Shown piece after piece: positions 50 through 20,210 of a DNA stretch of 26,396 nucleotides. Below the pieces are notes generated by a model that was not told the origin of the DNA, made no database searches, and was given only the letters and a program-made list of their open reading frames with translations. The DNA is taken from the IMG/VR virus record IMGVR_UViG_3300017782_000182, positions 1 to 26,396 of that record; one strand, given 5' to 3'. The DNA comes from a virus. The position numbers and the translations under genes are program-made. Each line of letters begins with the position of its first letter. Position 1 is the first letter of the stretch.

Positions 50-78
50 TTGAATTAAATTAAATAATTGTTTACTAT
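50..78 (+). promoter_or_regulatory. Candidate sigma70-type promoter of the early operon
   Basis: TTGAAT (50-55) and TACTAT (73-78) are separated by exactly 17 bp, close to the consensus -35 and -10 boxes. Transcription would begin near 85, giving a leader of only about 16 nt that starts at the AAAGGA ribosome site (85-90). The very short leader and the AT-rich background, where such hexamers arise by chance, limit confidence. Nothing else recognisable lies in bases 1-100. Confidence 0.4.
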
Positions 79-100
79 ACACGCAAAGGAAATAAATATT

Positions 101-1817: not shown

Positions 1818-1818
1818 T

Positions 1819-2067: not shown

Positions 2068-2076
2068 GGAGGAAAT

Positions 2077-2391: not shown

Positions 2392-2396
2392 GGCAA

Positions 2397-2708: not shown

Positions 2709-3112
2709 AGATTGGACAAGAACTTGAACTAAAAGTTCTTAATAAAATTAATCAAAAATATCCGTCTGCTGTTCTTATTCCCGGAAAATTCAAACCATAC
2801 GACATTTACATACCTGAGAGTAATCTTAAAGTTGAGGTTAAAGCAGATTACAAAAGCCAAGAAACTGGCAACATTATTATAGAAGTTCTTATGTATGACA
2901 AACCATCAGCCCTGCTATCAACAGAAGCTGACTATTGGATCATATACACAGGAAAAGAATATCTTTGGACCACACCCAAAAAAATAATACAATGCATTAT
3001 TATTAACAACATCCGTTGTCAGGAAATTTTAGGAGATGGCGACACTCAAGTTAAGCTTGCTTGTTTGATCCCAATAGAATTATTCAAAGATTGTGTTTGT
3101 CACATAACTTGA
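2657..3112 (+). CDS. PD-(D/E)XK nuclease, possible resolvase
   Basis: A 151-residue protein with a small restriction-nuclease-like core. It has a helix with 'GQELELKVL' (E22/E24), a strand ending 'YDIYI' (D49), and 'VEVK' (E60, K62), followed by helix and strand segments ('ADYWIIYTG', 'YLWTT'). This D...ExK arrangement is the metal-binding catalytic site of the PD-(D/E)XK superfamily. Phage members of this size act as Holliday-junction resolvases, nicking enzymes or VRR-like nucleases; I cannot tell which. It begins inside the preceding gene (52-nt overlap, different frame), implying translational coupling. Placed after the annealase and exonuclease, it could process recombination intermediates. 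Its stop codon overlaps the -35 box of the next promoter candidate. Confidence 0.75.
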   Translation: MARSSESQSTKAFQKDLKIGQELELKVLNKINQKYPSAVLIPGKFKPYDIYIPESNLKVEVKADYKSQETGNIIIEVLMYDKPSALLSTEADYWIIYTGKEYLWTTPKKIIQCIIINNIRCQEILGDGDTQVKLACLIPIELFKDCVCHIT

Positions 3113-3136
3113 CTTTGTTTGTAATTAGTGTATTCT
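3109..3136 (+). promoter_or_regulatory. Candidate internal promoter for the second early block
   Basis: TTGACT (3109-3114) and TATTCT (3131-3136) are separated by 16 bp. The -35 box overlaps the stop codon of the nuclease gene. Transcription would start near 3143, at or just before the ATG at 3144. This argues that the real start of the next gene is the ATG at 3168, which has GAGGG (3159-3163) in front of it. The -35 is strong and the -10 moderate. Confidence 0.45.
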
Positions 3137-3167
3137 TTGTATTATGAATTATTTATATGAGGGATTT

Positions 3168-3365
3168 ATGAATAAAAAATATATCTTTAACAATTTCTTT
3201 ATGGGCTCTTGGAAAGCCGGAAGAATGATACTGGAGGTAAGATCAATAGGACACAAGTGGGTCTGGGTCAAGCCAACAGGCAGGAAGCAATTCAGTAGAA
3301 TAACTAGAGCAGAGTGGGACCAAATTTCTAGCTCTAAAAGTTTTGAGGAAATCAAAAATGATTAG
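3168..3365 (+). CDS. Small basic protein, function unknown
   Basis: A 65-residue protein with net positive charge and several tryptophans. A probable small beta sheet (about 15-45, 'GRMILEVRSIGHKWVWVKP') is followed by 'RKQFSRITRAEWDQI', which could form a helix contacting nucleic acid. I chose the ATG at 3168 because GAGGG lies 4 nt upstream and the promoter candidate would start transcription near 3143. The ATG at 3144 would add eight residues but would have no leader. The stop overlaps the next gene's start by 8 nt. I do not recognise a family. The compact beta-hairpin plus helix could be a DNA-binding or modulator protein, but nothing in the sequence proves it. Confidence 0.55.
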   Translation: MNKKYIFNNFFMGSWKAGRMILEVRSIGHKWVWVKPTGRKQFSRITRAEWDQISSSKSFEEIKND

Positions 3366-3867
3366 AGAAAATTATGCAATAAAAATCTACGAAGAAGAAA
3401 AAACTAAACTACAAGCTTCCAGAGTAAAAAAATTTTTAGCTATTAAAAAATTAAAAAAACAAATTGATGAGCAAGAAGATAGTCTTAAACAAATTCGTAG
3501 TGGTATTTCTAAAACAGAAAATAAAATAAAAATTTGGAAACAAGAAAAAACATGGAAAAGAAGTTGTTATGCTTTATTAAAAAAACATGATTACCTTTGG
3601 TTCGATGACACAGATTATGAAAATATAAGCAATATTCATAAAAATTCTTCATGGGATACTATTGTTACAGAATGTGATCTTATGTCTCACTCTTGTACCT
3701 TTTGGTTTGGGTCAGACGATTTTGACGATGAAGATGAAAGGGACCCATATTACGATGCACACTACTGCGACTCATGGCAAGAACTACACGCAGCTCTCAA
3801 AGAATATGTAAGGATTCGCAGAGATAAAATAATTGATGCGGAACTTGATGCGGAGAAAGCACAATGA
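3358..3867 (+). CDS. Coiled-coil and acidic protein, function unknown
   Basis: A 169-residue protein. I use the ATG at 3358 because GAGGAA (3345-3350) lies 7 nt upstream; an in-frame TTG at 3343 has no better site. Residues 1-70 are a long lysine- and glutamate-rich helix, likely a coiled coil. Residues 75-150 are a compact, aromatic and acidic part with 'HDYLWFDDTDY', a Cys/His pair in 'LMSHSC', and the stretch 'DDFDDEDERDPYYD'. The final 30 residues are helical again. The highly acidic patch could mimic DNA or bind a basic partner; that is speculation. The start overlaps the previous stop and the end overlaps an upstream alternative start of the next gene. No known family was recognised. 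Confidence 0.6.
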   Translation: MIRENYAIKIYEEEKTKLQASRVKKFLAIKKLKKQIDEQEDSLKQIRSGISKTENKIKIWKQEKTWKRSCYALLKKHDYLWFDDTDYENISNIHKNSSWDTIVTECDLMSHSCTFWFGSDDFDDEDERDPYYDAHYCDSWQELHAALKEYVRIRRDKIIDAELDAEKAQ

Positions 3868-3890
3868 AATATGGATTTGAAGGAGTAACT

Positions 3891-4088
3891 ATGGAATATT
3901 TCGGAGAAGAAGCTATGCGAGTTGGATCACAGATAGAAGACTGGCTGCAAGAGTTAGCTCATCGTGGTCACACTAAAAAAGATGTTGAAGCTGAAAGAGA
4001 TAAGGCATACAAGTACTTAAGAATGTCTGGTTTAACTAAATCGACAGCAAGACATTTATTTAACATCTTTTACGGTATAGAAGAATAA
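3891..4088 (+). CDS. Small helical protein, function unknown
   Basis: A 65-residue, mostly helical protein. I prefer the ATG at 3891 because AAGGAG (3880-3885) lies 5 nt upstream. An in-frame ATG at 3864 overlaps the previous stop (ATGA) and would add nine residues. The helices are about 5-23 ('EEAMRVGSQIEDWLQELAH'), 28-45 and 48-62 ('TKSTARHLFNIFYG'). The last part resembles a short helix-turn-helix-like pair, but there is no clear match. It is the last gene before the structured region in front of the integrase, so it may belong to the same control unit. I do not recognise a family. Confidence 0.55.
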   Translation: MEYFGEEAMRVGSQIEDWLQELAHRGHTKKDVEAERDKAYKYLRMSGLTKSTARHLFNIFYGIEE

Positions 4089-4106
4089 TATGATTTTTGG
4101 ATGCCC

Positions 4107-4245
4107 AGCGGTTTTGTTTTTAAGATTTCGTATTCCGCTCATTGAGGGTCTGGCTCTCCCAAGAAGGCAAAACGAGCCCAGTTCATGGTTGTCTCTATAC
4201 AACCTTTTTGCGTGAGGGTGGCTCACTTGCGAACAAAACGAGCCA
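4107..4245 (+). repeat. Structured repeat region before the integrase
   Basis: The 165-bp gap 4089-4253 holds two imperfect copies of one module (4143-4178 and 4213-4244). Each has TGAGGGT, GGCTC, then the exact 11-mer CAAAACGAGCC (4168-4178 and 4234-4244). Within each copy GGCTC pairs with GAGCC: 4152-4156 with 4174-4178, and 4219-4224 with 4240-4245 (six pairs, TGGCTC/GAGCCA). AGCGG (4107-4111) also faces CCGCT (4135-4139), and GTTTTG (4111-4116) is the inverse of CAAAAC. Such arrays could be integrase arm or excisionase sites, an operator, or RNA structure. The attachment site cannot be fixed from this window alone. Confidence 0.6.
4187..4209 (+). terminator. Weak intrinsic terminator of the early operon
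   Basis: GGTTGT (4187-4192) pairs with ACAACC (4199-4204) around a six-base loop and is followed directly by TTTTT (4205-4209). The six-pair stem is half AT, so termination may be partial and allow some read-through into the integrase gene. It lies between the two repeat modules. Confidence 0.45.
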
Positions 4246-4253
4246 TTTAAATT

Positions 4254-5054
4254 ATGAAGACTTGGGAAAACACAATTAAAGAATATTACAGATTCAAAAA
4301 TATAGGTAAGAACGACTATACCTATAAGAAATATTTCGATGGCTTATTTAGTGGTTGGGATATAAACAAGATTACAAAAGAACACATAGCGAAAGCTAGG
4401 TCAGGCATAAAAGGAAAACCCGGCACAGTGAATCGTTATTTAAGTTACTTCAGGGCAATACTTATGTATGCTTATGAAGAGCTAGGCTGGTTGGACTCCA
4501 AGCCAATTGTTAAGAGAGTTAGGGAAAAAGGCAACTCCCATAAGTATTTCTCTAAAGAAGATATTGATAGGTTGGTTTCGACCTTACCGAAACACCTCGT
4601 GCAACCTTTTATCTTCTCTCTTTTGACTGGGGTGAGGATGTCCAACTGCTTTAGCCTGCAATGGGAAAATGTTAAAGAAAACCAAATAGCCATACCTGCT
4701 GAAGAGACTAAAAACGGAAAACCCTTATGTATTCCATTAAACTCTAAATGCAAACAGTTACTAAACAGTATAGAAAAAACCAGTCCATATGTATTCACTT
4801 ACGCTGGCAGAAGAATAAGGAAAGCATCAAACACTGGCTGGTATAATGCATTAAAAAAATGTGGGCTAGAAGGTTTTAGATGGCATGACATAAGGCACAC
4901 TTGGGCTACTCATCATGTTATGAATGGTACACCATTACATACTTTGCAACATCTTGGTGGTTGGTCAGACTTTAATATAGTTAATAGGTATGCTCACCTA
5001 TCACAAGACTATTTAAACGATGCTTGTGAGAACAGTAATAGTTTGATATCTTAG
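4254..5054 (+). CDS. int: Tyrosine-family site-specific integrase
   Basis: A 266-residue tyrosine recombinase that would insert and excise the phage genome at an attachment site. Residues 1-95 resemble the core-binding (SAM-like) domain, with 'YFDGLFSGWDINKIT' and 'NRYLSYFRAILMYAYEELGWL'. The catalytic domain follows: R128 in TGVR, K153 in the TKNGK beta-turn, H211-x-x-R214, W237 in the usual His/Trp position, and the nucleophile Y246. All catalytic positions are therefore present. The protein is short because it lacks a long arm-binding N-terminal domain. The ATG follows a region without a clear ribosome site, so translation may be weak or dependent on structure. It is the only + strand gene after the structured region and converges with the late operon. 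No recognisable repressor is visible nearby. Confidence 0.92.
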   Translation: MKTWENTIKEYYRFKNIGKNDYTYKKYFDGLFSGWDINKITKEHIAKARSGIKGKPGTVNRYLSYFRAILMYAYEELGWLDSKPIVKRVREKGNSHKYFSKEDIDRLVSTLPKHLVQPFIFSLLTGVRMSNCFSLQWENVKENQIAIPAEETKNGKPLCIPLNSKCKQLLNSIEKTSPYVFTYAGRRIRKASNTGWYNALKKCGLEGFRWHDIRHTWATHHVMNGTPLHTLQHLGGWSDFNIVNRYAHLSQDYLNDACENSNSLIS

Positions 5055-5147: not shown

Positions 5148-8100
5148 CTACCTTCCTTCCTTAATAGCATCTCTGTAAACTTTGTTGAACTCTTTCATAA
5201 TTTCAATTTCTTCTTGTTCAAGATCATTATAAATTTCATAATATTTCTTACGATTTTTTTCGTAGTAATCTTCTTTAGCAATTTCTTGTAGTTTTTTTAT
5301 TTCTTTTAGTTGTTTTTCTGTAGCTGCAAGCAAACTATTGTTCCCATACCTTTTTGTTGCGTAAGCATTAAAAGTGTTGCCTAAACTTTCTAATGGGAAG
5401 TTAATTCTATCTAAAAATTCTTCTGGCTCCTCTGATGGGTCAAGCGATTCCATAAGTTTTCTATATGCGTTCTCTGCCCTCTCAACTTCTGCTGCATTTT
5501 CGTAAAAGTATTCAACATCTATTCTATCATTTGCTTGAGTTGTAATTCTTCTAAGGACTGGTATCTGCCTTATTTCAGGTCTGTCTGGATTAGTAGCAAA
5601 ATTCCATGTTCTTCTAACAGTTCGACCCAAACCCCCAAAACCCTGATCAAACAGATAAACAAATGGTGCTGGATCAATATCAACCTCACCTGCATAAAAT
5701 TCATTACCACCGGTAGCATCATTAATTGTTCTTGTAATGCCTCGTATAAACTCAGGAACTTTTTTATTTTCTCTATAAGATTTAGGTGTTGTGTCATTAA
5801 AGTATGGTTCATAGTAAATAGGTGATCCAAAGTGATCTCTGTTTATCATTAGCTCTCCGGCTGGTTTGGCTAATGATGGTAGTGCTGATACTGCAATATT
5901 TTCAAAAAAGTTTCCTTCTGTAGCATAAGGTATTGGAGAGAAGTTGTGCATTAAAGAGTGTGCAAACTCTTTAGCAGCATCTGAAACATCATAATCATAG
6001 TTATCTAGTTCTTTAGCAAGCAATAATTCTGTAGATATTCTTGAAACATTGGCAAAGAAAGCATATCCATAAGGCATTGGTATGCTTAAACCAATTTCTT
6101 TTTTATTGCCGTTTGAGTCTACAGTAAAATATTTACTACCAGCTCCCCAAGACTCAACACTTAATTCTCCTTTACCATCAACTTCGACACCGGGTAACAT
6201 GAAAATAAATTTTGTTTGTTTCTCCCAATCAGGTATTTTGTGATACATGTTTCTGCCATCATCATCTTCATCGGCAGTTAAAAGATTGTACATAGCAGCC
6301 AAAGAAGCTACTCCCATCATTCCAATAATTGCTTTACCTTTTCTTGAAGCGTAAAAATTTCTGTCCAGCGGATTGACTCCTCTGAATGTGTTGACTGTTC
6401 CTTGGATACTAGCATTGAAGAACATATAAAGGGCATTAGCTGTAGGTCCCATGGTTCCCATTCTGTTAAAGTTAACTGTTAAGTTTTTAGAAAGGGCAGC
6501 TGCTCTTTCAAATATAGCTGGACTTGCATTATCAATCCCACCCATTAGTTCAACATAACCTTGGAATGCTGTAAACCTAGCTGCATTTTCAATACCCATA
6601 TTATATCTTTCTATAAATTTGAATATTTTATTTGTTCCTTGTTTGAGGTTCCCTTTAAATGTGCCTTGATACATTTCCATCATGTCTTGCAGTTCGTCTG
6701 TCAGCTTGTCAACTGTTCTTGATTCAATGTAACCAGTTTCACCGCCATATTTTTTAAACATTGTTAGCATCATCTGCAATTTTATTTTTTCGGGTGTTAC
6801 TTGATTCTTTTGACTAAAAGAAAAAGCAGAGTATTTTTTTTCTAATTCAGTAATTTTTTCTGGTGTGAACTCTGAGTCTTCTAAGTTTCTAATTTCTTTA
6901 GCTAAATCTAAAGGCAGATTTAAAGCTCTATTATTTTCAAACCTAATAAGCTGTTTTGCATTATTAAGAATATTAACACTTGTGTAATATTTGTTAGCTA
7001 TTTCTAAGCCTCTTGCTCTGCCGCCTTCTATTTCTTCTTCTGCCAGCAAATTATAAAAACCTGTTTGTACATCACGAAGGAAGTTATTGATCATAAATGT
7101 TGGGTCAAGAGATGTATTAACCATAGAAAGCCATCTAGTTCCAGCTCTCATGCCAGTCATAAATGCTCCAGAAACACTGGTATCAAAATTATCGAAACCC
7201 TTGGCTAGCAATTTGTCATAGATTTCTACATATTTTTGCTCCCCATTTTCTCTAAAACCAACCCTTGAATATCCTTTTGTTTCATCCCACTTAGAGCCTA
7301 CAATAAGATCACCCACATCTTCTGAAACACTATACATTTTGCTAGGAAAAGCTCTAGCAAGTTCAGCTAATGATTTAATTACTCTGTTTTTTTCTGCTTG
7401 TATAGCTGCTGATGATGCTTGTACTACTGATTGTTGTAAAGGTGCTGCTGCTATAGACTCTCTTCCCTTAGCTTCTTTGACTAATGATCCCGCAACAGTC
7501 ATTTGACTATTGATTAAACCGCTTTTTGATTGTTTCCTTGTTATTTCTCTTCCCGTTTTAGGGTCAATGAGAGTGTCTTCGGCAAAACCTTGTAAAGGAA
7601 CATAGTACTTGTACCTTGCATTCCACTCTTGAACAGCTTGCTCTGTTTCTAAACCACTATCAGTCATTATTTTTCTGGTGTAGTCCATCATAGGCTTATG
7701 GTACCTATTAAATGCTTCTAATAAGTTTTTACCTTTTGTTAGAGAGCCTCTTGCTTCCATAGTGTTCAAATCAAATATAACACCATATTTTTTTAATGTA
7801 GCTACAGCTTGAGCTGTTGATATTCCTGAACCTGTTTCAGCTTTTTTAATTTTGTTTTTTAATGTTGTTACTTTTCTTCTAGCATTAGCTAATGTTTGTT
7901 TAGTTGATAATCTGCTTTTTTCTAGTTCGGCAAGTTCTTGCTCTGCTTTATTTAAATCTTCAGCAAACTTAGTAGGCAAGTAAGCATTTCTTTCAGGAGC
8001 ATGTAAATTATAAATAAAGTGATTGTATTCTGTTTCAGTTATGCCTTTTGATTGTAAAAAGTCTATCAAAGGCTCAAAATGATCTTCTCTAATATTTCTT

Positions 8101-11100
8101 AATAAATCTTTTATTCTGCCAGAAAATATATCTGTTTGAGTGGTAACTCGCCAGTCTCTTTTACTTGTATCAACACCAAGCTCTTTAAGTCTTTTTAAAA
8201 CTTCTCTTTCCCCAAATTGTTCTATAAGGTTTTCTTCTATAGTCCATATTCTGCCAAACTTATTAGCAACCGTAATGTTAAGTTTTTCCATTTCTCTAGC
8301 GAAAAATGTCATTTCTTTAAGTGAAAAGTTTTCGTCTGGGTCTGGTCCTCCCGGTGGAGGTGGTGGAGTTGGCGGTAAATTATCTAAAGACTCTTCTATT
8401 AGAAGCTGTTGATCTGATGGTAATGGGGAGACCTCTCTTTTTAAACTTGGTCCGCCTTGTCCTGTGGTTGGGAAGGCTCCATCGATTCCTGTGTCATAGT
8501 CTCCTGCTCTGTATTTGTCGAAGATTGCATCAACCTTTGCCCTGATACGAACAAGCCCCTTTTGTATGCTTTTGTTTTCGAGTCTGCCTTTGAGATATTC
8601 AGTTCCATCTGGTTTTTCTTTCCAATTATTAATTAGATACTGTGTATTGTATCGTATGTCATGAGTAATGTCAGCTTTTGCACCTTCTAACCCAACACTC
8701 TCTAAGGCTGATTCTATTTTTTCATTAAAGTTTTCAACAACCTGCCCTTTAAATTTAAAATTAATAATACCAATTTCATTAGCACTTAACTGAGTAAACC
8801 CATCGATGCCCTGTTTTCTTAGAGCTTCGTTTAATTGTTTTCTTAAAACATCATTGAGATCAATAGGAGCATTTGTTTTTGAGTCTACGAAAGAAACTTC
8901 AGTACCAAAATTAACAGCCTCATTGGTCATATCGTTTATTTCTTGCTCACTTATGTTTTCATTAGCAACGAAATAAGGGACAGCATCCTGTCTAAAGACA
9001 TAACCCCATGCTCTTAAGAAATCATCAGCATAAGATAAATCAATACTACTAAACTGTTGTTCACCCTGAACTTTTTCTAATAGCAAACTAGTTACTATAT
9101 TAGGATTAATCTCACCATTATAAGCTCCGAAGCTATGTGAGAACTTGTAGAGACCTGTGCCCGGGAATAGGTCCATGATCATATTCTTGCCTTTAGATGT
9201 TGTTATAGCTTCAAGTAAATCTCTAGTCATCATGGCTTTAGCTTTTGGATTTAATTTTTCCCCGAATTTGAACTCAGGAAGTGATGGGGTTGGAATTACT
9301 TCTGTTGTTGCTGTTGCACTGGCTTTATTTATAAATGTTTCATAACCAACATATTCTGCTGGTTTGCCTTTAGCTTGTAATTCTTTGTTTCTTGCATAGG
9401 TCCAAAGAACAGCTTGCATCTCCATTGGAGTAAGATTGTCATTGTTCTTTTCATTGTAAAGTTTTGTAGCTTCTTGAATTACAGCTGTACCATATCTGTG
9501 ATTAGCTAATTTATTTTGTAATTTATCAAAGCCTAGCAATTTGAACATCCAAGTGTCCATAGTTACTGCATCAGGGTTTTTGCCTGTAAGGTTTTCATAG
9601 AAACTTTGCAGTTTGAAACCCACCCCCGGAAGTTTCTGACCAAAGTCTTGTGCTGCTAAAGCTTCTGCAGCAAACTCACCAGCTTCTGGCTGGAAGCCGG
9701 GCAGTGGATCACCATTTTTTGCTAGGGCAACTAATGATCTTAGTGTATATGCTAGGTTAGTTTCTACTGGAGTTTGAGAAGAGTATACTGTCAATAGTCT
9801 AAGAACATCTTCTTTTAGTTTAGCATTGCCTCTGGTTAGATTATCTATTTCATCATTAACATTCTTATACCAGTTTCTACTTTGATCTATAAGTGATAAT
9901 GGATTTTCTGCTAGCTTAACTAAATCTTTTGCTAATTTATTAAAATCTTTTTGAGTGTTTCTAAAAGAACCATCTGCATTTTTTGGTGAGCCTGAAAATG
10001 TTTTAGTTGTTTCGGCTAGCTTGAGTTGTCCGATTGGGACATAGTTGCTTGCAGCGGAGTCTTTCTTTGGAATTTGAACACTGTCTCTTTGTCTTTCAGT
10101 AGTTCTCTCCACTCTTCGATAGGCTGCTTCTGGTCCAAAGACTTCTGCAATATCTCTTCCAGCTGTTCTTCTGGTGTATATTTGAGAATCTGCATCGGAA
10201 CGACTTGATTGAAAAGCATCTCGTATTCGGAGACCAAGCGTTGCAAGTTTGTTATCAGTGGTTGCATTATTTATATCTTCTATTAATTTTAAGGTTCTTG
10301 GAGCATAGTTTTTAAGAATCCTACGATTAGTATAATACAAACCATAAGCTTGTGCGAATAATTCTGACTTAAGAAAAGTTTCAATATCATCATCATAGAT
10401 TTCTGTTCTCCCCATGTTGATTTCTGCTAGATATTTATCAAAAGGATAGGATAGCAGTCTTCCTCCTAATGGGCTTTGGTTTGGTCCTGTTCTTGAAACT
10501 AAGTAAAGATTAAAAAGTTCTTTAAATATTTGACCACCTGTTGTGAATTTATGATTTATAACATTATCAATGTCTAGCCTTCTCATGACCCCTGCCATGC
10601 TAAGATCAGGGTCAAGACCATTATTTTCAGCTATTTTTGAAAACTCAGCATCAATGTCAATGCTTTCAAACAGTGGAGATGTAGCTGCAAAGCTTTCTTG
10701 TTCAGCTATATAATCTATTGCATGAGCCATTTCATGGGCTAGTGTCTGTTGTAGATCAGCCCTAGATGCAGTAATGTAATCTAATACATCTTGAGGGGGG
10801 TTATTAATATCAAGGTCTGGTTGTATATTTTTTTTATATTTTTTTAAATCTAAAATAATTGAAGGGCTTAAAAGAACAGTTTGTGAATTAAGTTTATATT
10901 GTCCAAGATATTCTGAAACACTACCTTTTTCTGTTCCCCCTACTCCTAGAAAAGGAATTAATCTAAAAACTTGTTCAGGCATTCCTTGTTTAGTTAAGTT
11001 GTCTATAACTTCTGCTATAACAATAGATTCTTCTTCAGTAAGGTCCCTTACATTCGCTGTGAAAGCTGAACCACTTAAATCTTGTATCGATAAATCGGCA

Positions 11101-13163
11101 GAAAGTTCTTCTGGTAAAACCTTTTCAAAATCTGGCGTGTTGTTACCCGTGTAAAAAGCAATTTTGAAATTTTCTTTATCAAATAATAATGGTCTTAGTA
11201 TTTCATTTTGAACTCTTTCAATGTCTCTAGGGTCTGTTTCTTGTTTTATTTGATCTTCTATGCTCTCCGGTCTGTCTCTTATGGCTTCAACAGTAGACAT
11301 ATGAGATGTGTTCAGGTCTCCATCGTCATACAATTCTCCTTTATAATCAGTGCCATAAGTTTTTATCTGTAAGGTTTGCTCTTCAGTTTTAGGAACATTC
11401 TTATTAATATAATCAACTAAAGTTTTTCTGTCTGTTTCTAACTGTTCAACTTTTTCTGGACTTTTTTCTTTAGCAGCTTCTATTTGATTATTGTATTGAA
11501 CTATTCTTTCTTCGACTTTATTGTTGAAATCATTAACATTTAATATGTTATCATCTTGCATGATGTTCATAACTTTTCTTGCTTGCTCAACAGATTCAAC
11601 TGGATCAAAGTCTTCAGTTGCAAATTCTGAAGCATATTCTCTTACTAGTGTTTTTTCAGCCTCAGTAAGGTCTTCTTGAACAAGGTCTCTAGCTAAAATT
11701 CTTTCAGCAAAATATTCATCTGGCAATATTTCAGGATTCTTAAGGTAGTATGACTGTCTTGTTGGAGCTAAGTATTGCTCAGGAGACATATTATAAAAAT
11801 CTTTTGGTCCCTCTTCAGGTGTTTCTGTGCCCACCATTGATTTTGATGGGTCTAAAAGACCAGATTTAAAAACATATTGATAAGTATCATCGAGAGCTTT
11901 AAACTGTGCTTCTGATCTGTTTATTATAAGATTTAGTTCTCTAGCTATTTGTCTTGATACATTTTTATCAAAAGTGTTCAGAACATTTTTTTGTATGTCG
12001 GGTCCAAATGCTGCTACACCTTGTGCTGACACCATACCGCCAGAACTAACTAATGATGATATGGTTGTCATGTAAGCATTATCTACCATAACTTCATACC
12101 ATTCTGGACCATCGTATTCTGGGTTATCTTTGTTTGCTAAAGCTACTGCAAGTTCTGTTTGAACTCCGCCTATAAGTTTATTAGTTTCTTGTAAAAAAGT
12201 ATTAGCATTTTCCGCAACAGTATTTTTAAACGATGTTTCGGCTCCATCTCTAGCAAATTCTTGTAGTGAGCTGCCATGAGTCTTCCAATATTTTTTCATT
12301 GTTTTAGTAACAAATGGCAGAGGAGCTAACTCAGTACCAACCTCAAATGCAGCATTCATGCCAGATACTCGCATAGCATCTCTGTGAGATAGTCCTGACA
12401 TTCTAGCCTCTCTATAAGAAGCACCTCTTTCCATGTAGCCAAATACTGGTAGCATTGCATACATCCAAGTAGGGTTTTTAGTTGCTAGAGTTAAGGCAAA
12501 GCTCGAACCCTGAATACCAAAAGATGTAACACCACCTGAAACAGCTCTAGCAGTTTTGCCTAAACCTTGAGTATTTTTTTCTATTTTTTTTTGTTCTGCT
12601 TCCCATTTATCATAATTTTTATCTAAAGCATTTAAATAGTTATTAACATAATTTATTTTTTCTACTTGAGGCAAAGCGTTGAAAGTATCTTTTTTTTCTT
12701 GTTGATAGTCTCGCATAAACTTAGTTTCTTGCGGTACAAATAACCTACCAGCTGCACCTTCACCGAAAGTTGTTCCAAAGCCTAATGGTTTGCGTGGAGA
12801 TATTTGTCCAGTTTCTACAAGAGCTTCTTCTTCAATTTTTTCAAACTCGTTGTCAAGAATGGCTTGTGATATGGTGCTTGGAATATTTTTAATACCTGAA
12901 ACAAAACCTTGAATTAATTGTCCCTTTGATGAAGCAGAAACCCCTGCACCTAGTTCTCCGAGAAAACTTTTTGGGGCATAAGAAGTTTCTCTGGCTTTCT
13001 GCTCTTCTAGAAAATCATTAACAAAATCTTCTTCATTAAGTTTAGGTTGAACAACCTCTGGTTCTTTTTCTGTCAGACCTAAAGCTTCGTCTGCAAGCTT
13101 CTTCTTCTCATCTTCTGGTAAGAGTGAGAATGGGTCTGTAAGTGTAAATCTTGAATCTGCCAC
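5148..13163 (-). CDS. Giant polyvalent/ejection protein: zincin, glycosylase-like and LPD38-like parts
   Basis: A 2671-residue protein at the end of the late operon, in the place of T7 gp16. Visible parts, in order: an Ala/Gly-rich amphipathic region (about 205-290); helical segments; a zincin-like domain with H810-E-M-A-H814 and a likely third ligand E934 in ELFAQAY; a segment (about 1125-1210) with 'LLTVYSSQT', then LPGVGFK with K1184 and MDTW with D1203, matching the endonuclease III pattern; an unassigned domain (about 1340-1500, 'GAYNGEINPN'); a proline-rich hinge near 1600; a coiled coil (about 1737-1775); an LPD38-like region from about 1990 ('DPTFMINNFLRD'); a hydrophobic helix near 2280; and a coiled-coil tail. 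LPD domains mark polyvalent proteins thought to be injected with DNA. I saw no lysozyme-type motif. The gene starts 4 nt after the preceding stop. Confidence 0.8.
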   Translation of the reverse strand: MADSRFTLTDPFSLLPEDEKKKLADEALGLTEKEPEVVQPKLNEEDFVNDFLEEQKARETSYAPKSFLGELGAGVSASSKGQLIQGFVSGIKNIPSTISQAILDNEFEKIEEEALVETGQISPRKPLGFGTTFGEGAAGRLFVPQETKFMRDYQQEKKDTFNALPQVEKINYVNNYLNALDKNYDKWEAEQKKIEKNTQGLGKTARAVSGGVTSFGIQGSSFALTLATKNPTWMYAMLPVFGYMERGASYREARMSGLSHRDAMRVSGMNAAFEVGTELAPLPFVTKTMKKYWKTHGSSLQEFARDGAETSFKNTVAENANTFLQETNKLIGGVQTELAVALANKDNPEYDGPEWYEVMVDNAYMTTISSLVSSGGMVSAQGVAAFGPDIQKNVLNTFDKNVSRQIARELNLIINRSEAQFKALDDTYQYVFKSGLLDPSKSMVGTETPEEGPKDFYNMSPEQYLAPTRQSYYLKNPEILPDEYFAERILARDLVQEDLTEAEKTLVREYASEFATEDFDPVESVEQARKVMNIMQDDNILNVNDFNNKVEERIVQYNNQIEAAKEKSPEKVEQLETDRKTLVDYINKNVPKTEEQTLQIKTYGTDYKGELYDDGDLNTSHMSTVEAIRDRPESIEDQIKQETDPRDIERVQNEILRPLLFDKENFKIAFYTGNNTPDFEKVLPEELSADLSIQDLSGSAFTANVRDLTEEESIVIAEVIDNLTKQGMPEQVFRLIPFLGVGGTEKGSVSEYLGQYKLNSQTVLLSPSIILDLKKYKKNIQPDLDINNPPQDVLDYITASRADLQQTLAHEMAHAIDYIAEQESFAATSPLFESIDIDAEFSKIAENNGLDPDLSMAGVMRRLDIDNVINHKFTTGGQIFKELFNLYLVSRTGPNQSPLGGRLLSYPFDKYLAEINMGRTEIYDDDIETFLKSELFAQAYGLYYTNRRILKNYAPRTLKLIEDINNATTDNKLATLGLRIRDAFQSSRSDADSQIYTRRTAGRDIAEVFGPEAAYRRVERTTERQRDSVQIPKKDSAASNYVPIGQLKLAETTKTFSGSPKNADGSFRNTQKDFNKLAKDLVKLAENPLSLIDQSRNWYKNVNDEIDNLTRGNAKLKEDVLRLLTVYSSQTPVETNLAYTLRSLVALAKNGDPLPGFQPEAGEFAAEALAAQDFGQKLPGVGFKLQSFYENLTGKNPDAVTMDTWMFKLLGFDKLQNKLANHRYGTAVIQEATKLYNEKNNDNLTPMEMQAVLWTYARNKELQAKGKPAEYVGYETFINKASATATTEVIPTPSLPEFKFGEKLNPKAKAMMTRDLLEAITTSKGKNMIMDLFPGTGLYKFSHSFGAYNGEINPNIVTSLLLEKVQGEQQFSSIDLSYADDFLRAWGYVFRQDAVPYFVANENISEQEINDMTNEAVNFGTEVSFVDSKTNAPIDLNDVLRKQLNEALRKQGIDGFTQLSANEIGIINFKFKGQVVENFNEKIESALESVGLEGAKADITHDIRYNTQYLINNWKEKPDGTEYLKGRLENKSIQKGLVRIRAKVDAIFDKYRAGDYDTGIDGAFPTTGQGGPSLKREVSPLPSDQQLLIEESLDNLPPTPPPPPGGPDPDENFSLKEMTFFAREMEKLNITVANKFGRIWTIEENLIEQFGEREVLKRLKELGVDTSKRDWRVTTQTDIFSGRIKDLLRNIREDHFEPLIDFLQSKGITETEYNHFIYNLHAPERNAYLPTKFAEDLNKAEQELAELEKSRLSTKQTLANARRKVTTLKNKIKKAETGSGISTAQAVATLKKYGVIFDLNTMEARGSLTKGKNLLEAFNRYHKPMMDYTRKIMTDSGLETEQAVQEWNARYKYYVPLQGFAEDTLIDPKTGREITRKQSKSGLINSQMTVAGSLVKEAKGRESIAAAPLQQSVVQASSAAIQAEKNRVIKSLAELARAFPSKMYSVSEDVGDLIVGSKWDETKGYSRVGFRENGEQKYVEIYDKLLAKGFDNFDTSVSGAFMTGMRAGTRWLSMVNTSLDPTFMINNFLRDVQTGFYNLLAEEEIEGGRARGLEIANKYYTSVNILNNAKQLIRFENNRALNLPLDLAKEIRNLEDSEFTPEKITELEKKYSAFSFSQKNQVTPEKIKLQMMLTMFKKYGGETGYIESRTVDKLTDELQDMMEMYQGTFKGNLKQGTNKIFKFIERYNMGIENAARFTAFQGYVELMGGIDNASPAIFERAAALSKNLTVNFNRMGTMGPTANALYMFFNASIQGTVNTFRGVNPLDRNFYASRKGKAIIGMMGVASLAAMYNLLTADEDDDGRNMYHKIPDWEKQTKFIFMLPGVEVDGKGELSVESWGAGSKYFTVDSNGNKKEIGLSIPMPYGYAFFANVSRISTELLLAKELDNYDYDVSDAAKEFAHSLMHNFSPIPYATEGNFFENIAVSALPSLAKPAGELMINRDHFGSPIYYEPYFNDTTPKSYRENKKVPEFIRGITRTINDATGGNEFYAGEVDIDPAPFVYLFDQGFGGLGRTVRRTWNFATNPDRPEIRQIPVLRRITTQANDRIDVEYFYENAAEVERAENAYRKLMESLDPSEEPEEFLDRINFPLESLGNTFNAYATKRYGNNSLLAATEKQLKEIKKLQEIAKEDYYEKNRKKYYEIYNDLEQEEIEIMKEFNKVYRDAIKEGR

Positions 13164-13167
13164 ATTG

Positions 13168-14880
13168 TTACCTTAGCAAAGGATATTTAGACAATAAGTC
13201 TAATATTGCCTGATCTGACAATTCTCCTAGTCCTCTGTTTCTTGCTGCTATTCTTGCCGCAGCTATGTAATTATCTATATCAGCAGCATCTATTTGTGGA
13301 TTACTATTTTTAATTTGCGGCAAAACAGAATCTAAAGAATCGGTTCTACTTACTGAAATTCCACCAATATTATATGTTTGTTGTACTCTTGTTTCTGTTT
13401 TTGTTTTTTCAAATGGTGTGCCTGCTTTTAGTCCATTTGATATTTCTTCTATGCTTGGAACATTTTGATCAACTAGTGATTGCCTGACAGACTTAATTGG
13501 TACATTGTTTTCATCTCTTTTGAATCTGTAATAAATTTGCCCATCTTCGGCATCGATACCAAGGTCTTCTGCTTCAGAGGCAGTGAGCACATCAACATCA
13601 TCTAAAAAGTTATATTTAGAATTTAATTTAGCAATTGATTCACTTTCTTTACCTGCATCAGAACCACCAATAGAGACTATTTCTCTATTCAATTGAGAGT
13701 CCATTGCTAGTAGTTGGGCAAATCTGTTTGATAAAACACCAAATGTCTCAATGGCTTTATTGTTAATGTTTGTTAATTCTCTTGGGTCTGTTTCATATAG
13801 GTTTTTTCTTCTTTCATTCACATCAGCTGCAACTTGAAAAACTGCAACATTATTTGGATTTAATGCATTTTGTATTATAGCTCTAGAGGATGATGCTGTG
13901 TCCATTAAATCATTTAGAGAAATTGAGAAGGCATCTGTAGATTCTAATGATTCACTTATGACAGCTCTTGTTGAATCTGGGATATATGATAGTGCTTCAG
14001 TACCATCGTCAAGACTAAATGTTGCTTTAAGTAAAACATTGCCACCTGATCTTTCTGAGCCTGAAACAGCTTCTAAAGAATTAAAATCTATATTTAAACC
14101 CGTTATTTTTGCTTTACTTCCGTCTGATTTTTTAAATGTTTTTCCAATAAATTCATTTTTTCTTATATCGAGCATTTTGTTTAGTTCTGTGTTGTAGTCA
14201 CCAAAATTAACATTTTCTAATCCTCCATCAGATTGCAATGCTTGAAATAAAGGTTCCAGTGCTATCATGTTTTTTGCATAGTCTTTATCTAACATTGAAA
14301 GAAGGTCTACTGAACCTGCTCTGTCTAAAGTATTAGCTTGTTCTGCAAAACCATTTATAACTAAATCATAAGCTGATGTTCCTTTTGATTCCATAAAAGT
14401 TTTATCGTTTGCATGTACCATCAAACCGTTCAATATATCTAAAGAAGTTCTAGCATTGTCATAGTCTTGTTGATTAGTAATCCCTTTCCTTTTTATAATG
14501 TTATCCATCTCAACATTCTCATTAGATAATTCAATATTTCTTAAGTTTGCTTGTGAAGTAGCATCAGAAGTTGCCAGCCTTTCACGATAGCCCTCTAATT
14601 CAATATCAATTGTATCTGACTGTTGACCCCTTAACCTTGTTGTTGCTTGAGATGATTCTATTTGTGCCTGTTGAGCTCTTAATGTTGATATATCTCCAGC
14701 CTCTCTAACAGTAGTGCCTTCAGCAAATTGTCCAGCTAAGTCTGGATCAACATTAGCTATATCTTGTGTAACTTCTGCTTCTCTATCTTTTGAAAGCTCT
14801 TGTTCTTCTTTTAAAAGGTTAAGCCTATCCATGCTTAACATGACACTTAAGCTATCATTAAATCCTTTACCAAAACTCAT
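13168..14880 (-). CDS. Internal virion (gp15-like) ejection protein candidate
   Basis: A 570-residue, soluble, mainly helical protein with no signal peptide or membrane segment. The N-terminus (about 1-125) is rich in Gln, Glu and Arg with heptad-like stretches, and the middle and C-terminus are mixed helix and strand. Size and position, after three small Gly/Gln-rich proteins and before the giant protein, match T7 gp15, which builds the tube for DNA entry across the envelope. That is an assignment by order, not by sequence match. The start ATG overlaps the previous gene's stop (ATGA), and only 4 nt separate its stop from the giant gene. The C-terminal 'AADIDNYIAAARIAARNRG' part is helical. 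It could be a scaffold for the giant protein inside the capsid. Confidence 0.55.
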   Translation of the reverse strand: MSFGKGFNDSLSVMLSMDRLNLLKEEQELSKDREAEVTQDIANVDPDLAGQFAEGTTVREAGDISTLRAQQAQIESSQATTRLRGQQSDTIDIELEGYRERLATSDATSQANLRNIELSNENVEMDNIIKRKGITNQQDYDNARTSLDILNGLMVHANDKTFMESKGTSAYDLVINGFAEQANTLDRAGSVDLLSMLDKDYAKNMIALEPLFQALQSDGGLENVNFGDYNTELNKMLDIRKNEFIGKTFKKSDGSKAKITGLNIDFNSLEAVSGSERSGGNVLLKATFSLDDGTEALSYIPDSTRAVISESLESTDAFSISLNDLMDTASSSRAIIQNALNPNNVAVFQVAADVNERRKNLYETDPRELTNINNKAIETFGVLSNRFAQLLAMDSQLNREIVSIGGSDAGKESESIAKLNSKYNFLDDVDVLTASEAEDLGIDAEDGQIYYRFKRDENNVPIKSVRQSLVDQNVPSIEEISNGLKAGTPFEKTKTETRVQQTYNIGGISVSRTDSLDSVLPQIKNSNPQIDAADIDNYIAAARIAARNRGLGELSDQAILDLLSKYPLLR

Positions 14881-16875: not shown

Positions 16876-18152
16876 TATTGTCCCTTAGTTATCCTCATAA
16901 CTTGTAAAAAATTATTATCAACAAAAGCATTGTTAGTTAAACCATTATTCTCTTTAACAAAAACTCTTACTTGAAATGATTCATCTTTTGCTGCTGTGAA
17001 AACAGTTGCAACCGTAAAACCCATACCTCTTTCTGCATAAAGTCTCATAGTCTTTGAAGTGTTCATGGTGCTATTAGTATTACTATAGACTTGCATTAAT
17101 ATGTCTGCTCCATCATCTCCTGCTATGTTTTCATCAGGATCAGCCAAGTTACCAGAATAAAATGCTGAATAAACTCCTGCCTCTCCTGCAACAAAAGAAG
17201 ACTGGTTTCCACCACCAGAAGTACCAAAGCTTATTACTTCTACATAAGAACCACCTTCTCCAGAAGCACCAATTGTTACTGATCCTCTGGCAAATGTTTT
17301 AAAAGCACCTGCAGCTTTAGTAGCAAGTTGACCTTGATTAACACCATTTGATTTTATTATTAGATTACCGCTGCCATCTGTGTCTATTGTGACATTGTCT
17401 ATTTTTATAGAATCTGCTGAAAGTTCTCCTGTAACTACATTTTCTAGGTTGGCAAAAGTTCCAGTTAGATTAGTTACATCTAAGTTACCAGTGACAGTAG
17501 AAGCAAAAGTTGCAAAAGAGCCTGTCAGTTTATCAACAGCTAGGTCTTGTATCTTTGCACTTGTTACAGCTAAATTAGTTATGTCAGTTGTGCCAACAGT
17601 TACAGTAGAAGCAAAAACACCATTATCATCTTGAAATGATCCGGCTATTCCATTTTTATTAACATGCCTAACCCAATAATATTTAGTTACTCCATTTCCT
17701 GTTCTGTGATTAAAGATAGTAGAAGATGTTTGCCCTAAGAAAACTTTGGTAGCAAAGTTATCAGAGTTGTTTACCCAAACCTCTGTATGTGAATGACCTG
17801 CATAAAGAGGTCTATTAAAAGAAACTACAATGTTTTGAAAAGCACCTGAAGCAGTTACTCCTGTTGGAATGCTTGCAGAGTCAACTCCTTGATCTATGGT
17901 TCCCAAGAAACCAGCACCAGCTGATCCTGAGCTTACTGTTACAGTATTTTTTTTAGCTAGACCAGATGCAATTAAATCATTGAAGGTTACTGCTTTGTCT
18001 AAAACATTTCCCTTTTCCCCGGTGAGCTGCTGTATGTTGTCTATTATATGTTGAGCAAATCTTTTACCTTCTGGGCTAAAATCTTTAGGTACAGGGAATG
18101 TTCCTTTAGCTCCTTGTCTTTTTCTTTTTTTGTTAAGTAACTGATTTGCCAC
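16875..18152 (-). CDS. gpJ-like tail tip / receptor-binding protein
   Basis: A 425-residue protein. The N-terminal 60 residues begin with a basic stretch and 'FPVPKDFSPEGKRFAQHIIDNIQQL'. A fibronectin III-like domain follows (about 90-180), ending with 'YYWVRHVNKNGIAGSF', the hallmark of the gpJ C-terminal region in siphoviruses. Residues about 190-260 are short repeats ('LTGSFATFASTVTGNL', 'LTGTFANLENVVTGEL'), and the end (about 285-425) is a beta-rich, jelly-roll-like part. This suggests a receptor-contacting tip built from lambda-like modules, but carried among podovirus-type genes. The start is a GTG overlapping the previous stop (TAGTG), with GGGAG upstream. The chaperone-like gene follows. 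Host recognition is inferred from architecture. Confidence 0.65.
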   Translation of the reverse strand: MANQLLNKKRKRQGAKGTFPVPKDFSPEGKRFAQHIIDNIQQLTGEKGNVLDKAVTFNDLIASGLAKKNTVTVSSGSAGAGFLGTIDQGVDSASIPTGVTASGAFQNIVVSFNRPLYAGHSHTEVWVNNSDNFATKVFLGQTSSTIFNHRTGNGVTKYYWVRHVNKNGIAGSFQDDNGVFASTVTVGTTDITNLAVTSAKIQDLAVDKLTGSFATFASTVTGNLDVTNLTGTFANLENVVTGELSADSIKIDNVTIDTDGSGNLIIKSNGVNQGQLATKAAGAFKTFARGSVTIGASGEGGSYVEVISFGTSGGGNQSSFVAGEAGVYSAFYSGNLADPDENIAGDDGADILMQVYSNTNSTMNTSKTMRLYAERGMGFTVATVFTAAKDESFQVRVFVKENNGLTNNAFVDNNFLQVMRITKGQ

Positions 18153-19822
18153 TAGGTAATCTCCCGTGCACTTTCATAAACACAAACTTCGTTTATGGTA
18201 TCTGTACCCTCCAACTGGACCTCAAACTCTTTTGCTCTATAGCCACCCGGTAATCTAAATACATCACCATTGGCAACTGTTTGTGTATGTTTAAGAGTTC
18301 CATCTGCAAAAAGTTTAAAGGTTAAGCTGTTATAAGAATCTGCATCTACTTTTGCTACACCGGGAGATAGAGGTCTGTTTGAAAAAAATTGTTTTGACTT
18401 CCAAGTGTATGCTCTTCGTGTTGCATTGTTAGAGAATGTTTTTAGAACTCCATCTATAACTAAATATAAAATATCATTTTCTCTATCGTTGTAACCTGCA
18501 TGTGCATAAAAATCTAGATTAACAAAGGCATTAGCCCCGCCTCTTGGATCAAAAATAAATCCCTTCTTGGTATTATTGTTAGAACCATCATAAGTAAATC
18601 CTATGTATTTGCCTTCGTACTCATAACCTTCAATATTCTCTGGATAATATTCTTGCCACTGATCTCTGGTAAATATCTGTTGTGTAATTAGTTGGATTCC
18701 TGATGCAGATGCTAAAACCAAACCATCTGGAGAGGAATAGATAGCATATTCACCCATATCAACTAATGATTTTTTATTGGCATTTGGCAAGTTAGCATCA
18801 ATCTCCACTATAGCAATAGCACTTGGATCAGTGCCTGATGCCATAAGAGGTTTTCCTTTGGTTGTTACTAGTAAACCAGAAGCTATTGAAGCTATAGCAA
18901 CTATGTCATCTTTGGTTGTTAGTTGGTTAGCAAGTGGATATGAGTGCGGTAGGTAAGCCTCACTAAATAGCAAAGTATTGCCTGAGAAGCCTGCTGTAAT
19001 ACCATTTGGCAGAGAAGTTATGCCAATCATAGGTCCATCAGGATGATCTGATGAAGTTGTGTCTGGTGGTGCTAGGTTGTCTGCGGACTCTATTTCTTCT
19101 CCGAGCAAATCGTCTAGGACATCTTCTGTTATGTTTCCTGCTGATGTCCCAGCCACATCTTTTACAAATCTAAAGACACCATTAACATCAGTTCTATATA
19201 TTCTTCTTTTCGCTATATTATAATTTCCACTACTCGCTGCTGGCAAAGCTAATGTAACTGTAGCTCCATTTGAGGCATCAACAATTTCATTAGATGTAAC
19301 TGCTGACGGTGGTCCTTCTTCCCCGAAGGCAGTGATCTCAGTATAAATATATGCCCTTGAAGATACTGCTGCACCTGCATCTGCTGTACCATTGTTGACA
19401 CTAGGTGCTGATGTAAATGCTGCTGGGGTTGGTAAACCCAATATAAATGAAGATGCTGGATAAGGACCTGAGCCATTGACTAGTGTGCTTCTTGGTCCAT
19501 ACTTAGGATCAACTCCGTTTTGTGTAAAATAAAATCTATTCTGTGGGTCTTCTTTTATCGGGCTTTTTATAATATCAACATCGCCTGTAAATGTTAACCA
19601 GTTAGAGCTAGTGATCTGAAATACTGTTCTGGTGTTTGCATCTATATGTGATGCCGGATGAGAGCTTGGTTCTGAAGAATGATTTGTATCGCTTTTTAAC
19701 CCTTCTAGTCTGCCAGAATCTAAGAATGAGTTTTGTGTATCTTGGGCAACAGTATCAGGCAGGAGTCTTGGAGACACCTTTTTGTTAAGACCACTAAATG
19801 TGTTAATTTTAAATCCAGCCAT
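18152..19822 (-). CDS. Beta-rich tail (nozzle or stabilisation) protein
   Basis: A 556-residue protein from the ATG at 19822, the start I prefer: it gives the familiar 'MAGFKINTFSGLNKKVSPRLLP' opening (22 residues, shortened here) and sits one base after the previous stop. An in-frame GTG at 19843 would add seven residues. The family opening is 'GLNKKVSPRLLPDTVAQD...DSGRLEG', seen in many marine-phage structural proteins. The body is beta-rich with repeated blades, includes an FnIII-like patch (about 155-235, 'AYIYTEITAFGEEGP'), and the C-terminus is also beta-rich. The pattern recalls propeller-type tail proteins such as P22 gp10 or T7 gp12, which close or stabilise the portal exit. I infer this from length, layout and place; no direct match can be shown here. 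Confidence 0.55.
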   Translation of the reverse strand: MAGFKINTFSGLNKKVSPRLLPDTVAQDTQNSFLDSGRLEGLKSDTNHSSEPSSHPASHIDANTRTVFQITSSNWLTFTGDVDIIKSPIKEDPQNRFYFTQNGVDPKYGPRSTLVNGSGPYPASSFILGLPTPAAFTSAPSVNNGTADAGAAVSSRAYIYTEITAFGEEGPPSAVTSNEIVDASNGATVTLALPAASSGNYNIAKRRIYRTDVNGVFRFVKDVAGTSAGNITEDVLDDLLGEEIESADNLAPPDTTSSDHPDGPMIGITSLPNGITAGFSGNTLLFSEAYLPHSYPLANQLTTKDDIVAIASIASGLLVTTKGKPLMASGTDPSAIAIVEIDANLPNANKKSLVDMGEYAIYSSPDGLVLASASGIQLITQQIFTRDQWQEYYPENIEGYEYEGKYIGFTYDGSNNNTKKGFIFDPRGGANAFVNLDFYAHAGYNDRENDILYLVIDGVLKTFSNNATRRAYTWKSKQFFSNRPLSPGVAKVDADSYNSLTFKLFADGTLKHTQTVANGDVFRLPGGYRAKEFEVQLEGTDTINEVCVYESAREIT

Positions 19823-19823
19823 T

Positions 19824-20210
19824 TCATTTTTCTCTTGATACACCTTTTGTCTTTTCCCAAGACCTTAAGCCGCCAAGACCTAGCATACCCATAAGTATAG
19901 TAGATAATTGGCTAAATTCGAACTCAGGAAGAGAAACTCCCGGTGCATAAATGTTTATAATTAGTCCTAATACAGGTGCAAGTATAAAGTGATAAGCTAG
20001 TGCTACTCCGCAGCACCAGCCTACAAAAGGTCTCCAGCCACTAACAAAAATTGACTGATGATTTGCCTCAATTTTATTAACTTCAAGTTGAGCCATGTTA
20101 GCTCTATGAAGTTCAGTTTTTAGTTCGTGAGCGAGTTTTTCTTTTAAATCTTTATCTTGGACAAACTTATCCAGTATACCGGAAACTGGTCCAATTAAAG
20201 ATTCTATCAT
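19824..20210 (-). CDS. Holin of the 3TM type
   Basis: A 128-residue protein with a charged, helical N-terminus (1-55, 'LKEKLAHELKTELHRA') and hydrophobic segments at about 60-90 ('FVGWCCGVALAYHFILAPVLG') and 105-118 ('LSTILMGMLGLGGLRSWEK'). The 'SGWRPFVGW' entry into the first membrane segment and the GG-x-R-S-x-EK end are typical of the holin family Holin_3TMs (PF11351), which oligomerises in the inner membrane and triggers release of lysis enzymes. The start overlaps the 88-residue gene's stop as TAATG. No endolysin gene is visible beside it in this window, so the partner may be encoded outside or be a domain of another protein. Assignment is good by pattern. Confidence 0.8.
   Translation of the reverse strand: MIESLIGPVSGILDKFVQDKDLKEKLAHELKTELHRANMAQLEVNKIEANHQSIFVSGWRPFVGWCCGVALAYHFILAPVLGLIINIYAPGVSLPEFEFSQLSTILMGMLGLGGLRSWEKTKGVSREK

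What the first reader, a model, noticed from the sequence alone, without database searches (positions are those of the whole stretch)
9553..9785. Endonuclease III-like (HhH-GPD) signature inside the giant ejection protein
At about residues 1125-1210 the protein reads 'LLTVYSSQTPVETN', then LPGVGFK, then MDTWMFKLLG. This parallels the core of HhH-GPD DNA glycosylases: the 'LL.SaQT' helix, the LPGVG-x-K hairpin and a downstream D-T-H. In E. coli Nth the Lys and Asp are K120 and D138 (18 apart). Here they are K1184 and D1203 (19 apart). The Fe-S cysteines of Nth are absent. A base-excision-type domain delivered with the genome would be unusual, for example for repairing or marking DNA on entry.
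Basis: partly seen in the sequence, partly recalled or inferred. Interest (0 to 1): 0.7.

Follow-up and report, generated by a model that had tools for sequence, protein, structure and literature searches.

The report
Glycosylase-like domain in phage ejection protein
Inside a giant, cysteine-free protein that this virus of bacteria probably injects together with its DNA sits a domain that looks like a DNA-repair enzyme able to cut damaged or altered bases out of DNA, so the virus may bring its own base-removing tool into the cell.

Summary
The region is Pfam DUF7178 (PF23802, unknown function), otherwise a stand-alone ~200-aa protein of many phages. In a 51-member alignment, down to ~16% identity, K and D are invariant. 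Two AlphaFold models (pLDDT 84 and 94.5) both find 8-oxoguanine glycosylases as best PDB matches (E 0.05 and 0.006; TM up to 0.61). Profile comparison pairs K with K and D with D, above every shuffled control for Nth-type profiles. So DUF7178 is very probably a divergent HhH-GPD domain, nearer OGG2/OGG1 than Fe-S endonuclease III. It lacks OGG2's C-terminal lysine, so its substrate is open.

The 2671-aa host protein has polyvalent-protein hallmarks (LPD38, a conserved HExxH motif) and no cysteine in ten homologues. The experimentally ejected N4 vRNAP and T7 gp15/gp16 also have none. Stand-alone DUF7178 proteins average ~4 cysteines, so these were lost on recruitment. The domain is the protein's most conserved part.

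Most likely: a base-excision enzyme delivered with the genome, acting on DNA before phage genes are expressed. Activity and substrate are untested. New variant of a known kind.

The parts
5148..13163 (-). Giant polyvalent-type protein, 2671 aa, no cysteine; carries the domain
   Evidence: ORF; LPD38; phrog_14770, phrog_616, phrog_10691; 0 Cys here and in 9 homologues of 2413-2723 aa
9372..9953 (-). DUF7178 / HhH-GPD-like domain, modelled core residues ~1071-1264
   Evidence: (PF23802, residues 1093-1260, E 1.6e-11), (AF2 pLDDT 84, pTM 0.83; OGG folds; profile-profile)
9756..9797 (-). Predicted base-flipping wedge region LLTVYSSQTPVETN (1123-1136); S1128 and N1136 invariant in the family
   Evidence: hOGG1 counterpart SSNNN confirmed in PDB chains
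9612..9632 (-). HhH hairpin LPGVGFK (1178-1184); K1184 (9612-9614) is the predicted Schiff-base lysine
   Evidence: invariant; aligned to catalytic Lys of Nth/OGG
9555..9557 (-). D1203, predicted catalytic aspartate (GPD Asp), 19 residues after K1184
   Evidence: (invariant)
9399..9422 (-). C-terminal core helix EMQAVLWT (1248-1255); Q1250, A1251 and W1254 invariant
   Evidence: aligned with the D-W-A-I-W helix of OGG2-like proteins
10722..10736 (-). HEMAH (810-814), HExxH zincin-like metallopeptidase motif in the same protein
   Evidence: HExxH in 10/10 homologues; SprT-like, weak, E 0.013
5556..6251 (-). LPD38, large polyvalent protein associated domain 38 (2305-2536)
   Evidence: E 1.1e-26
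18152..19843 (-). Internal virion protein upstream in the same strand cluster (virion context)
   Evidence: phrog_511 internal virion protein, E 6e-131
13168..14880 (-). Adjacent 570-aa protein, no family, no cysteine; possible co-ejected partner

Best explanation
Residues ~1071-1264 form a divergent HhH-GPD (OGG/Nth superfamily) DNA-base-excision domain, the family Pfam calls DUF7178. It is carried as one payload of a polyvalent protein that is packaged in the phage particle and ejected into the host with the DNA. Proposed mechanism: the protein passes through the short tail largely unfolded, which would explain the absence of cysteine. It refolds inside and may be cut into units by its own zincin-like peptidase. 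The DUF7178 unit then binds duplex DNA through the LPGVG hairpin, inserts the SSQT wedge loop, flips out a base, and uses D1203 and K1184 to break the glycosidic bond and possibly nick the strand by a Schiff-base lyase step. The target is most likely a damaged or altered base in the entering phage genome, handled with host repair enzymes before any phage gene is expressed. Shown: motif, family, invariance of K and D, fold match by prediction, zero cysteine, domain context. Inferred: ejection, catalysis, substrate, peptidase processing, biological role.
For: Family: PF23802 E 1.6e-11, phrog_3842. Fold: the window-domain model's best 50 PDB matches are all OGG1/OGG except one (probability up to 0.99, E from 0.05). 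A stand-alone member (pLDDT 94.5, pTM 0.90) hits OGG2 of M. jannaschii, T. maritima and S. solfataricus (probability 1.00, E from 0.0058, TM up to 0.61), then OGG1, MutY and MagIII. Profile-profile: DUF7178 vs Nth-type set 81.5% probability, score 44.4 against a shuffled maximum of 19.1; vs OGG2-like set 75.7%, score 42.2 against a maximum of 18.6. The embedded and stand-alone sub-alignments each beat every shuffle with the Nth-type and combined sets. K136 and D155 of the alignment (K1184/D1203) are invariant in 51/51 and again in 59/59. Selection: the domain is the most conserved stretch of the giant (80-84% vs 22-71% elsewhere); dN/dS to L004 is 0.05 against 0.32 and 0.13 for flanking parts. 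Ejection: 0 Cys in 10 homologues and in three related giants of 3066-3832 aa; N4 vRNAP (3500 aa), T7 gp15 and gp16 also 0; [quoted passage not shown] a related giant is annotated DarB-like antirestriction protein.
Against: Foldseek E-values are above 0.001 and TM-scores only 0.4-0.6. HMMER finds no PDB relative with the domain profile, and Pfam HhH-GPD itself does not hit. Profile probabilities stay below 90%, and against a small three-sequence OGG2 subset the score does not beat shuffles. The GPD histidine is Trp here. OGG2's C-terminal 8-oxoG-sensing lysine has no counterpart. P1 DarB, a head-borne polyvalent protein of a long-tailed phage, has 9 Cys, so absence of cysteine marks only some ejected proteins. 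No virion proteomics or enzyme assay for this protein is known to me.
Confidence: 0.66

Rival explanations
1. A true HhH-GPD glycosylase/lyase, but aimed at host DNA or a defence-related modified base (takeover or counter-defence), not at repair of the phage genome.
For: Polyvalent proteins mainly carry conflict modules (PMC5512222). Relatives of this giant carry methylase, helicase and GNAT domains where this one carries DUF7178. Stand-alone DUF7178 genes lie in early or genome-end gene regions, in one case a few genes from an Ocr-like antirestriction gene and in others upstream of RNA polymerase or replication genes.
Against: The family spans phages of very different hosts, which favours a general substrate. 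No consistent modification or defence neighbour was seen in the few contexts read.
Confidence: 0.3
2. HhH-GPD fold without base excision: a base-modifying enzyme derived from glycosylases, such as the amino acid:DNA transferases (aGPT-PPlase) of thymidine hypermodification, or a plain DNA-binding module.
For: An amino acid:DNA transferase protein of Mycobacterium phage LilMcDreamy appears among weak fold matches (rank 47, E 2.4). Phage genomes carry aGPT-PPlase genes for base hypermodification (PMC11955845); their relation to glycosylase folds is from own knowledge.
Against: Both catalytic residues are invariant across very divergent members. The closest folds are active glycosylases. No hypermodification genes were seen in the window or in the stand-alone contexts read.
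Confidence: 0.17
3. The resemblance is superficial: an unrelated helical domain with a chance LPGVGxK motif.
For: Modest Foldseek and profile scores; no significant pairwise match to E. coli Nth.
Against: Two independent models point to the same superfamily, K-K/D-D pairing arises in several profile comparisons, shuffled controls score far lower, and K and D are invariant.
Confidence: 0.05
4. Structural ejection protein in which the domain is an inactive relic that only helps conduit formation or DNA binding.
For: Internal virion context.
Against: It is the most conserved part of the protein, with both catalytic residues kept and strong purifying selection.
Confidence: 0.1

Closest known systems
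DUF7178 (PF23802) / phrog_3842
   Same: Same family over the whole domain; invariant W-Y, S, N, GxK, D, Q-A..W
   Different: Usually a free ~200-aa early-region phage protein with ~4 cysteines; here embedded in a giant protein and cysteine-free
OGG2 8-oxoguanine DNA glycosylases (PF22175; M. jannaschii 3knt/3fhf, S. solfataricus 3fhg, T. maritima 3n0u)
   Same: Best fold matches of the stand-alone member; GxK...D pairing and C-terminal Trp helix align; no Fe-S cluster
   Different: No C-terminal lysine sensor of 8-oxoG; low identity; substrate unknown
OGG1 (human, mouse, C. acetobutylicum)
   Same: Best fold matches of the window domain; K-D spacing 19 in both; ungapped HhH-GPD stretch places exactly at residue 1180
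   Different: No N-terminal A-domain; D-T-W instead of D-V-H
Endonuclease III (Nth)
   Same: SSQT/SAQA wedge, LPGVGxK, V/M-D-T pattern; best profile score
   Different: No Fe-S cluster; K-D spacing 19 not 18; fold search prefers OGG
Phage polyvalent ejection proteins (DarB-like giants, N4 vRNAP)
   Same: LPD38, zincin-type HExxH, payload architecture, virion gene context, no cysteine as in N4 vRNAP
   Different: No DNA glycosylase is mentioned in the main text of the 2017 survey of 131 polyvalent domains (PMC5512222)

Membership tests
DUF7178 (PF23802) | Profile match over the curated cut-off | tested here: met
   44.9 bits vs cut-off 27
HhH-GPD superfamily | All-helical two-domain fold with HhH between | tested here: met
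   Predicted models, best PDB matches OGG2/OGG1/MutY/MagIII; probability 0.99-1.00 but E > 0.001
HhH-GPD superfamily | HhH hairpin L-P-G-[VI]-G | tested here: met
   LPGVG in the window; reduced to GxK in many relatives
HhH-GPD superfamily | Conserved catalytic Asp after the Gly/Pro stretch | tested here: met
   D1203 invariant 51/51, pairs with Nth D138/OGG1 D268
HhH-GPD superfamily | Match to the Pfam HhH-GPD profile (PF00730) | tested here: not met
   No hit even at E 10; relation seen only by profile-profile and fold comparison
Bifunctional glycosylase/AP lyase | Schiff-base lysine in the hairpin helix | tested here: met
   K1184 invariant; chemistry not tested
Bifunctional glycosylase/AP lyase | Base excision and lyase activity | not testable with these tools
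   needs purified protein
Bifunctional glycosylase/AP lyase | Lys and Asp together in one pocket | tested here: inconclusive
   Model coordinates not available; spacing of 19 equals OGG1
OGG2 | Strictly conserved C-terminal lysine that senses 8-oxoG | tested here: not met
   Stand-alone C-termini end ..WRRIH(G/N)I.. without conserved Lys; window domain is internal (PMC3397491)
Endonuclease III | 4Fe-4S cluster cysteines | tested here: not met
   No cysteine in the protein
Phage-type polyvalent protein | LPD38 plus several unrelated domains in a virion gene context | tested here: met
   PMC5512222
Phage-type polyvalent protein | Packaged and ejected into the cell | not testable with these tools
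   Indirect: zero cysteine as in N4 vRNAP and T7 gp15/16

The most novel reading that the evidence does not exclude
A phage delivers a working DNA base-excision enzyme in its particle, as part of a cysteine-free polyvalent protein, so that base removal starts on the entering DNA (or on host DNA) before any phage gene is expressed. A free early phage enzyme (DUF7178) was recruited for this, and its cysteines were lost to suit ejection through a short tail.
Probability: 0.45. Interest if true: 0.76.

Novelty: new variant of a known kind. Interest (0 to 1): 0.6.

Why it matters
It gives a testable function to a widespread phage family of unknown function and adds base excision to the known cargo of injected phage proteins. 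It also makes a concrete question testable: can a phage start DNA repair or DNA attack before its first transcript, using a protein from the particle? The complete absence of cysteine, shared with N4 vRNAP and T7 gp15/gp16, offers a simple sequence marker for proteins ejected through short tails.

Tried and rejected
Direct sequence search of PDB with the domain profiles gave no glycosylase. BLASTP against E. coli Nth gave no significant match. A weak PF00730 hit in the contig of L004 proved to lie at a terminase-like ORF, so it was dropped. Nth as a phage gene: most tblastn hits with E. coli Nth are in unannotated or fragment records with no bearing on this family. Profile comparison with three close OGG2-like sequences alone was not above shuffles; the broader set was. 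Scans for more distant giants with the domain returned only the same clade and free proteins, so spread among other giants rests on fold matches. No paper in the library mentions DUF7178, and none found joins glycosylases with polyvalent ejection proteins. Zero cysteine as a universal ejection mark was rejected: P1 DarB has 9, DdrB 2 and T7 gp14 1.

Full report
What was checked. The finding lies in a 2671-aa ORF, window 13163..5148 on the minus strand. K1184 and D1203 are 19 residues apart. In 20,000 shuffles of the protein, LPGxGxK followed by Asp at the right distance appeared 3 times, and the full pattern with the SSQT-type loop never.

Family. Pfam places residues 1093-1260 in DUF7178 (PF23802, E 1.6e-11) and PHROGs in phrog_3842; neither has a function. 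Close relatives in virus contigs carry the domain inside giant proteins; nine read in full are 2413-2723 aa. The wider family consists of free ~200-aa proteins in phages of Gordonia, Mycobacterium, Rhodococcus, Streptomyces, Microbacterium, roseobacters and cyanobacteria. Depositors call most of them hypothetical; a few are labelled glycosylase, DNA glycosylase or N-glycosylase. One is labelled portal protein, very likely wrongly.

Conservation. In a 51-member alignment reaching down to about 16% identity, the invariant residues are W1098, Y1099, S1128, N1136, K1184, F1188, D1203, Q1250, A1251 and W1254, with G1182 nearly so. A second alignment of 59 keeps the same set. The Trp in place of the usual His after D1203 also occurs in actinophage members (W in 8 of 34, H in 26 of 34).

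Fold. AlphaFold2 gave the window domain pLDDT 84 and pTM 0.83, and a free marine member pLDDT 94.5 and pTM 0.90. For the first, 49 of the best 50 PDB matches are 8-oxoguanine glycosylases (E from 0.05, probability up to 0.99). For the second, ranks 1-7 are OGG2 enzymes of M. jannaschii, T. maritima and S. solfataricus (E from 0.0058, probability 1.00, TM up to 0.61), followed by OGG1, MutY and MagIII. E-values are modest and TM-scores medium, as for a remote relative, but the two models agree on the superfamily.

Profile and motif comparison. hhalign of the DUF7178 alignment with Nth-type sequences gives 81.5% probability and score 44.4 (shuffled maximum 19.1, reversed 10.1). With OGG2-like sequences it gives 75.7% and score 42.2 (shuffled maximum 18.6), running from the GxK hairpin to the C-terminal Trp helix. 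The embedded members alone and the free members alone score lower, but still above every shuffle with these sets. Both catalytic residues pair with their counterparts in these alignments. With only three close OGG2-like sequences the score is not above shuffles. The OGG1 HhH-GPD stretch, checked as identical to PDB chains, fits the giant best at exactly residue 1180 without a gap, with K on K249 and D on D268; the M. jannaschii OGG2 stretch (checked) gives the same place. I therefore regard DUF7178 as a divergent HhH-GPD family with high confidence (about 0.93), although the Pfam HhH-GPD profile itself does not reach it.

What kind. It is not an endonuclease III in the strict sense: no Fe-S cysteines and an OGG-like spacing. 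It is not a canonical OGG2 either: the C-terminal lysine whose carboxylate recognises 8-oxoG (PMC3397491) is missing from the free proteins, and the window domain is internal. The lysine and aspartate of a bifunctional glycosylase/lyase are both kept. The substrate is open.

The carrier protein. [quoted passage not shown] That survey proposes that such peptidases free the domains. The gene lies in a virion gene cluster with an internal virion protein (phrog_511) and tail fibre genes. Related giants of Ruegeria, Vibrio and Burkholderia phages share the C-terminal part with LPD38, but carry methyltransferase, helicase, GNAT or LPD3 domains and no DUF7178 match. This looks like exchange of payload on a common carrier.

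Cysteine. The giant has no cysteine in any of ten homologues; at the frequency in the other window proteins the chance for one 2671-aa protein is about 1e-7. The three related giants of 3066-3832 aa have none either. As controls, N4 virion RNA polymerase (3500 aa) and T7 gp15 and gp16, which are known to be ejected (own knowledge), have none, while other structural proteins of the same phages mostly do. P1 DarB and DdrB, from a long-tailed phage, have 9 and 2. Free DUF7178 proteins average about 4 cysteines, and one cysteine present in 34 of 40 of them is valine in all 11 embedded copies. The domain thus seems to have been cleared of cysteine on entering an ejected protein. I infer that unfolded passage through a short tail and the oxidising periplasm is the reason.

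Selection. The domain is the most conserved stretch of the giant, 80-84% mean identity against 22-71% elsewhere. Its dN/dS to relative L004 is about 0.05, against 0.32 for the part before it and 0.13 for the C-terminal part (synonymous sites are saturated in more distant pairs). That fits an active enzyme better than a relic.

Mechanism and role. The likely course is ejection with the DNA, refolding, possible release by the peptidase, hairpin binding of DNA, wedge insertion, base flipping, and bond breakage by D1203/K1184, with host enzymes filling the gap. Free members sit in early or genome-end regions: upstream of RNA polymerase and replication genes in S-CBP42 and SIO1, at the genome start in A-4L, and in the region of an Ocr-like antirestriction gene in Thestral. 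Both forms would then act before replication. Repair of the entering genome is my first choice, attack on host or defence-modified DNA second, base modification third.

Limits. No coordinates of models were available, so the K-D distance was not measured. Nulls for the profile comparison are column shuffles of small alignments. Ejection and catalysis are inferred.

Noticed in passing
window 5148-13163 (-): The 2671-aa giant has zero cysteine, as do nine homologues and three related giants of 3066-3832 aa; N4 vRNAP and T7 gp15/gp16 share this, P1 DarB does not.
   Followed up: yes
window 13168-14880 (-): 570-aa protein next to the giant with no family match and no cysteine; perhaps co-ejected. 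The gene upstream of the Vibrio D79 giant (L224:854-2257, 467 aa) is also cysteine-free.
   Followed up: partly
window 8889-9338 (-): Residues 1276-1425, just after the domain, are also highly conserved (about 70%) but match no family (segment GKNMIMDLFPGTGLYKFSHSFGAYNGE).
   Followed up: no
L241:3504-4100: DUF7178 gene of Tunturiibacter phage Tunturi_3 is annotated 'portal protein', very likely a wrong label; the Rhodococcus phage Jflix2 member is labelled 'glycosyltransferase'.
   Followed up: partly
(BFVD fold matches): Several other large phage proteins, with ART-PolyVal, RelA/SpoT or large-polyvalent names, match the domain fold, so DUF7178-like domains may be a recurrent payload.
   Followed up: no
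window 68-5054 (+): ERF-type annealing protein, YqaJ exonuclease and an integrase on the opposite strand suggest a temperate phage.
   Followed up: no
L139: Record titled Chryseobacterium sp. holds an nth gene 90% identical to E. coli, so the contig is probably enterobacterial.
   Followed up: no
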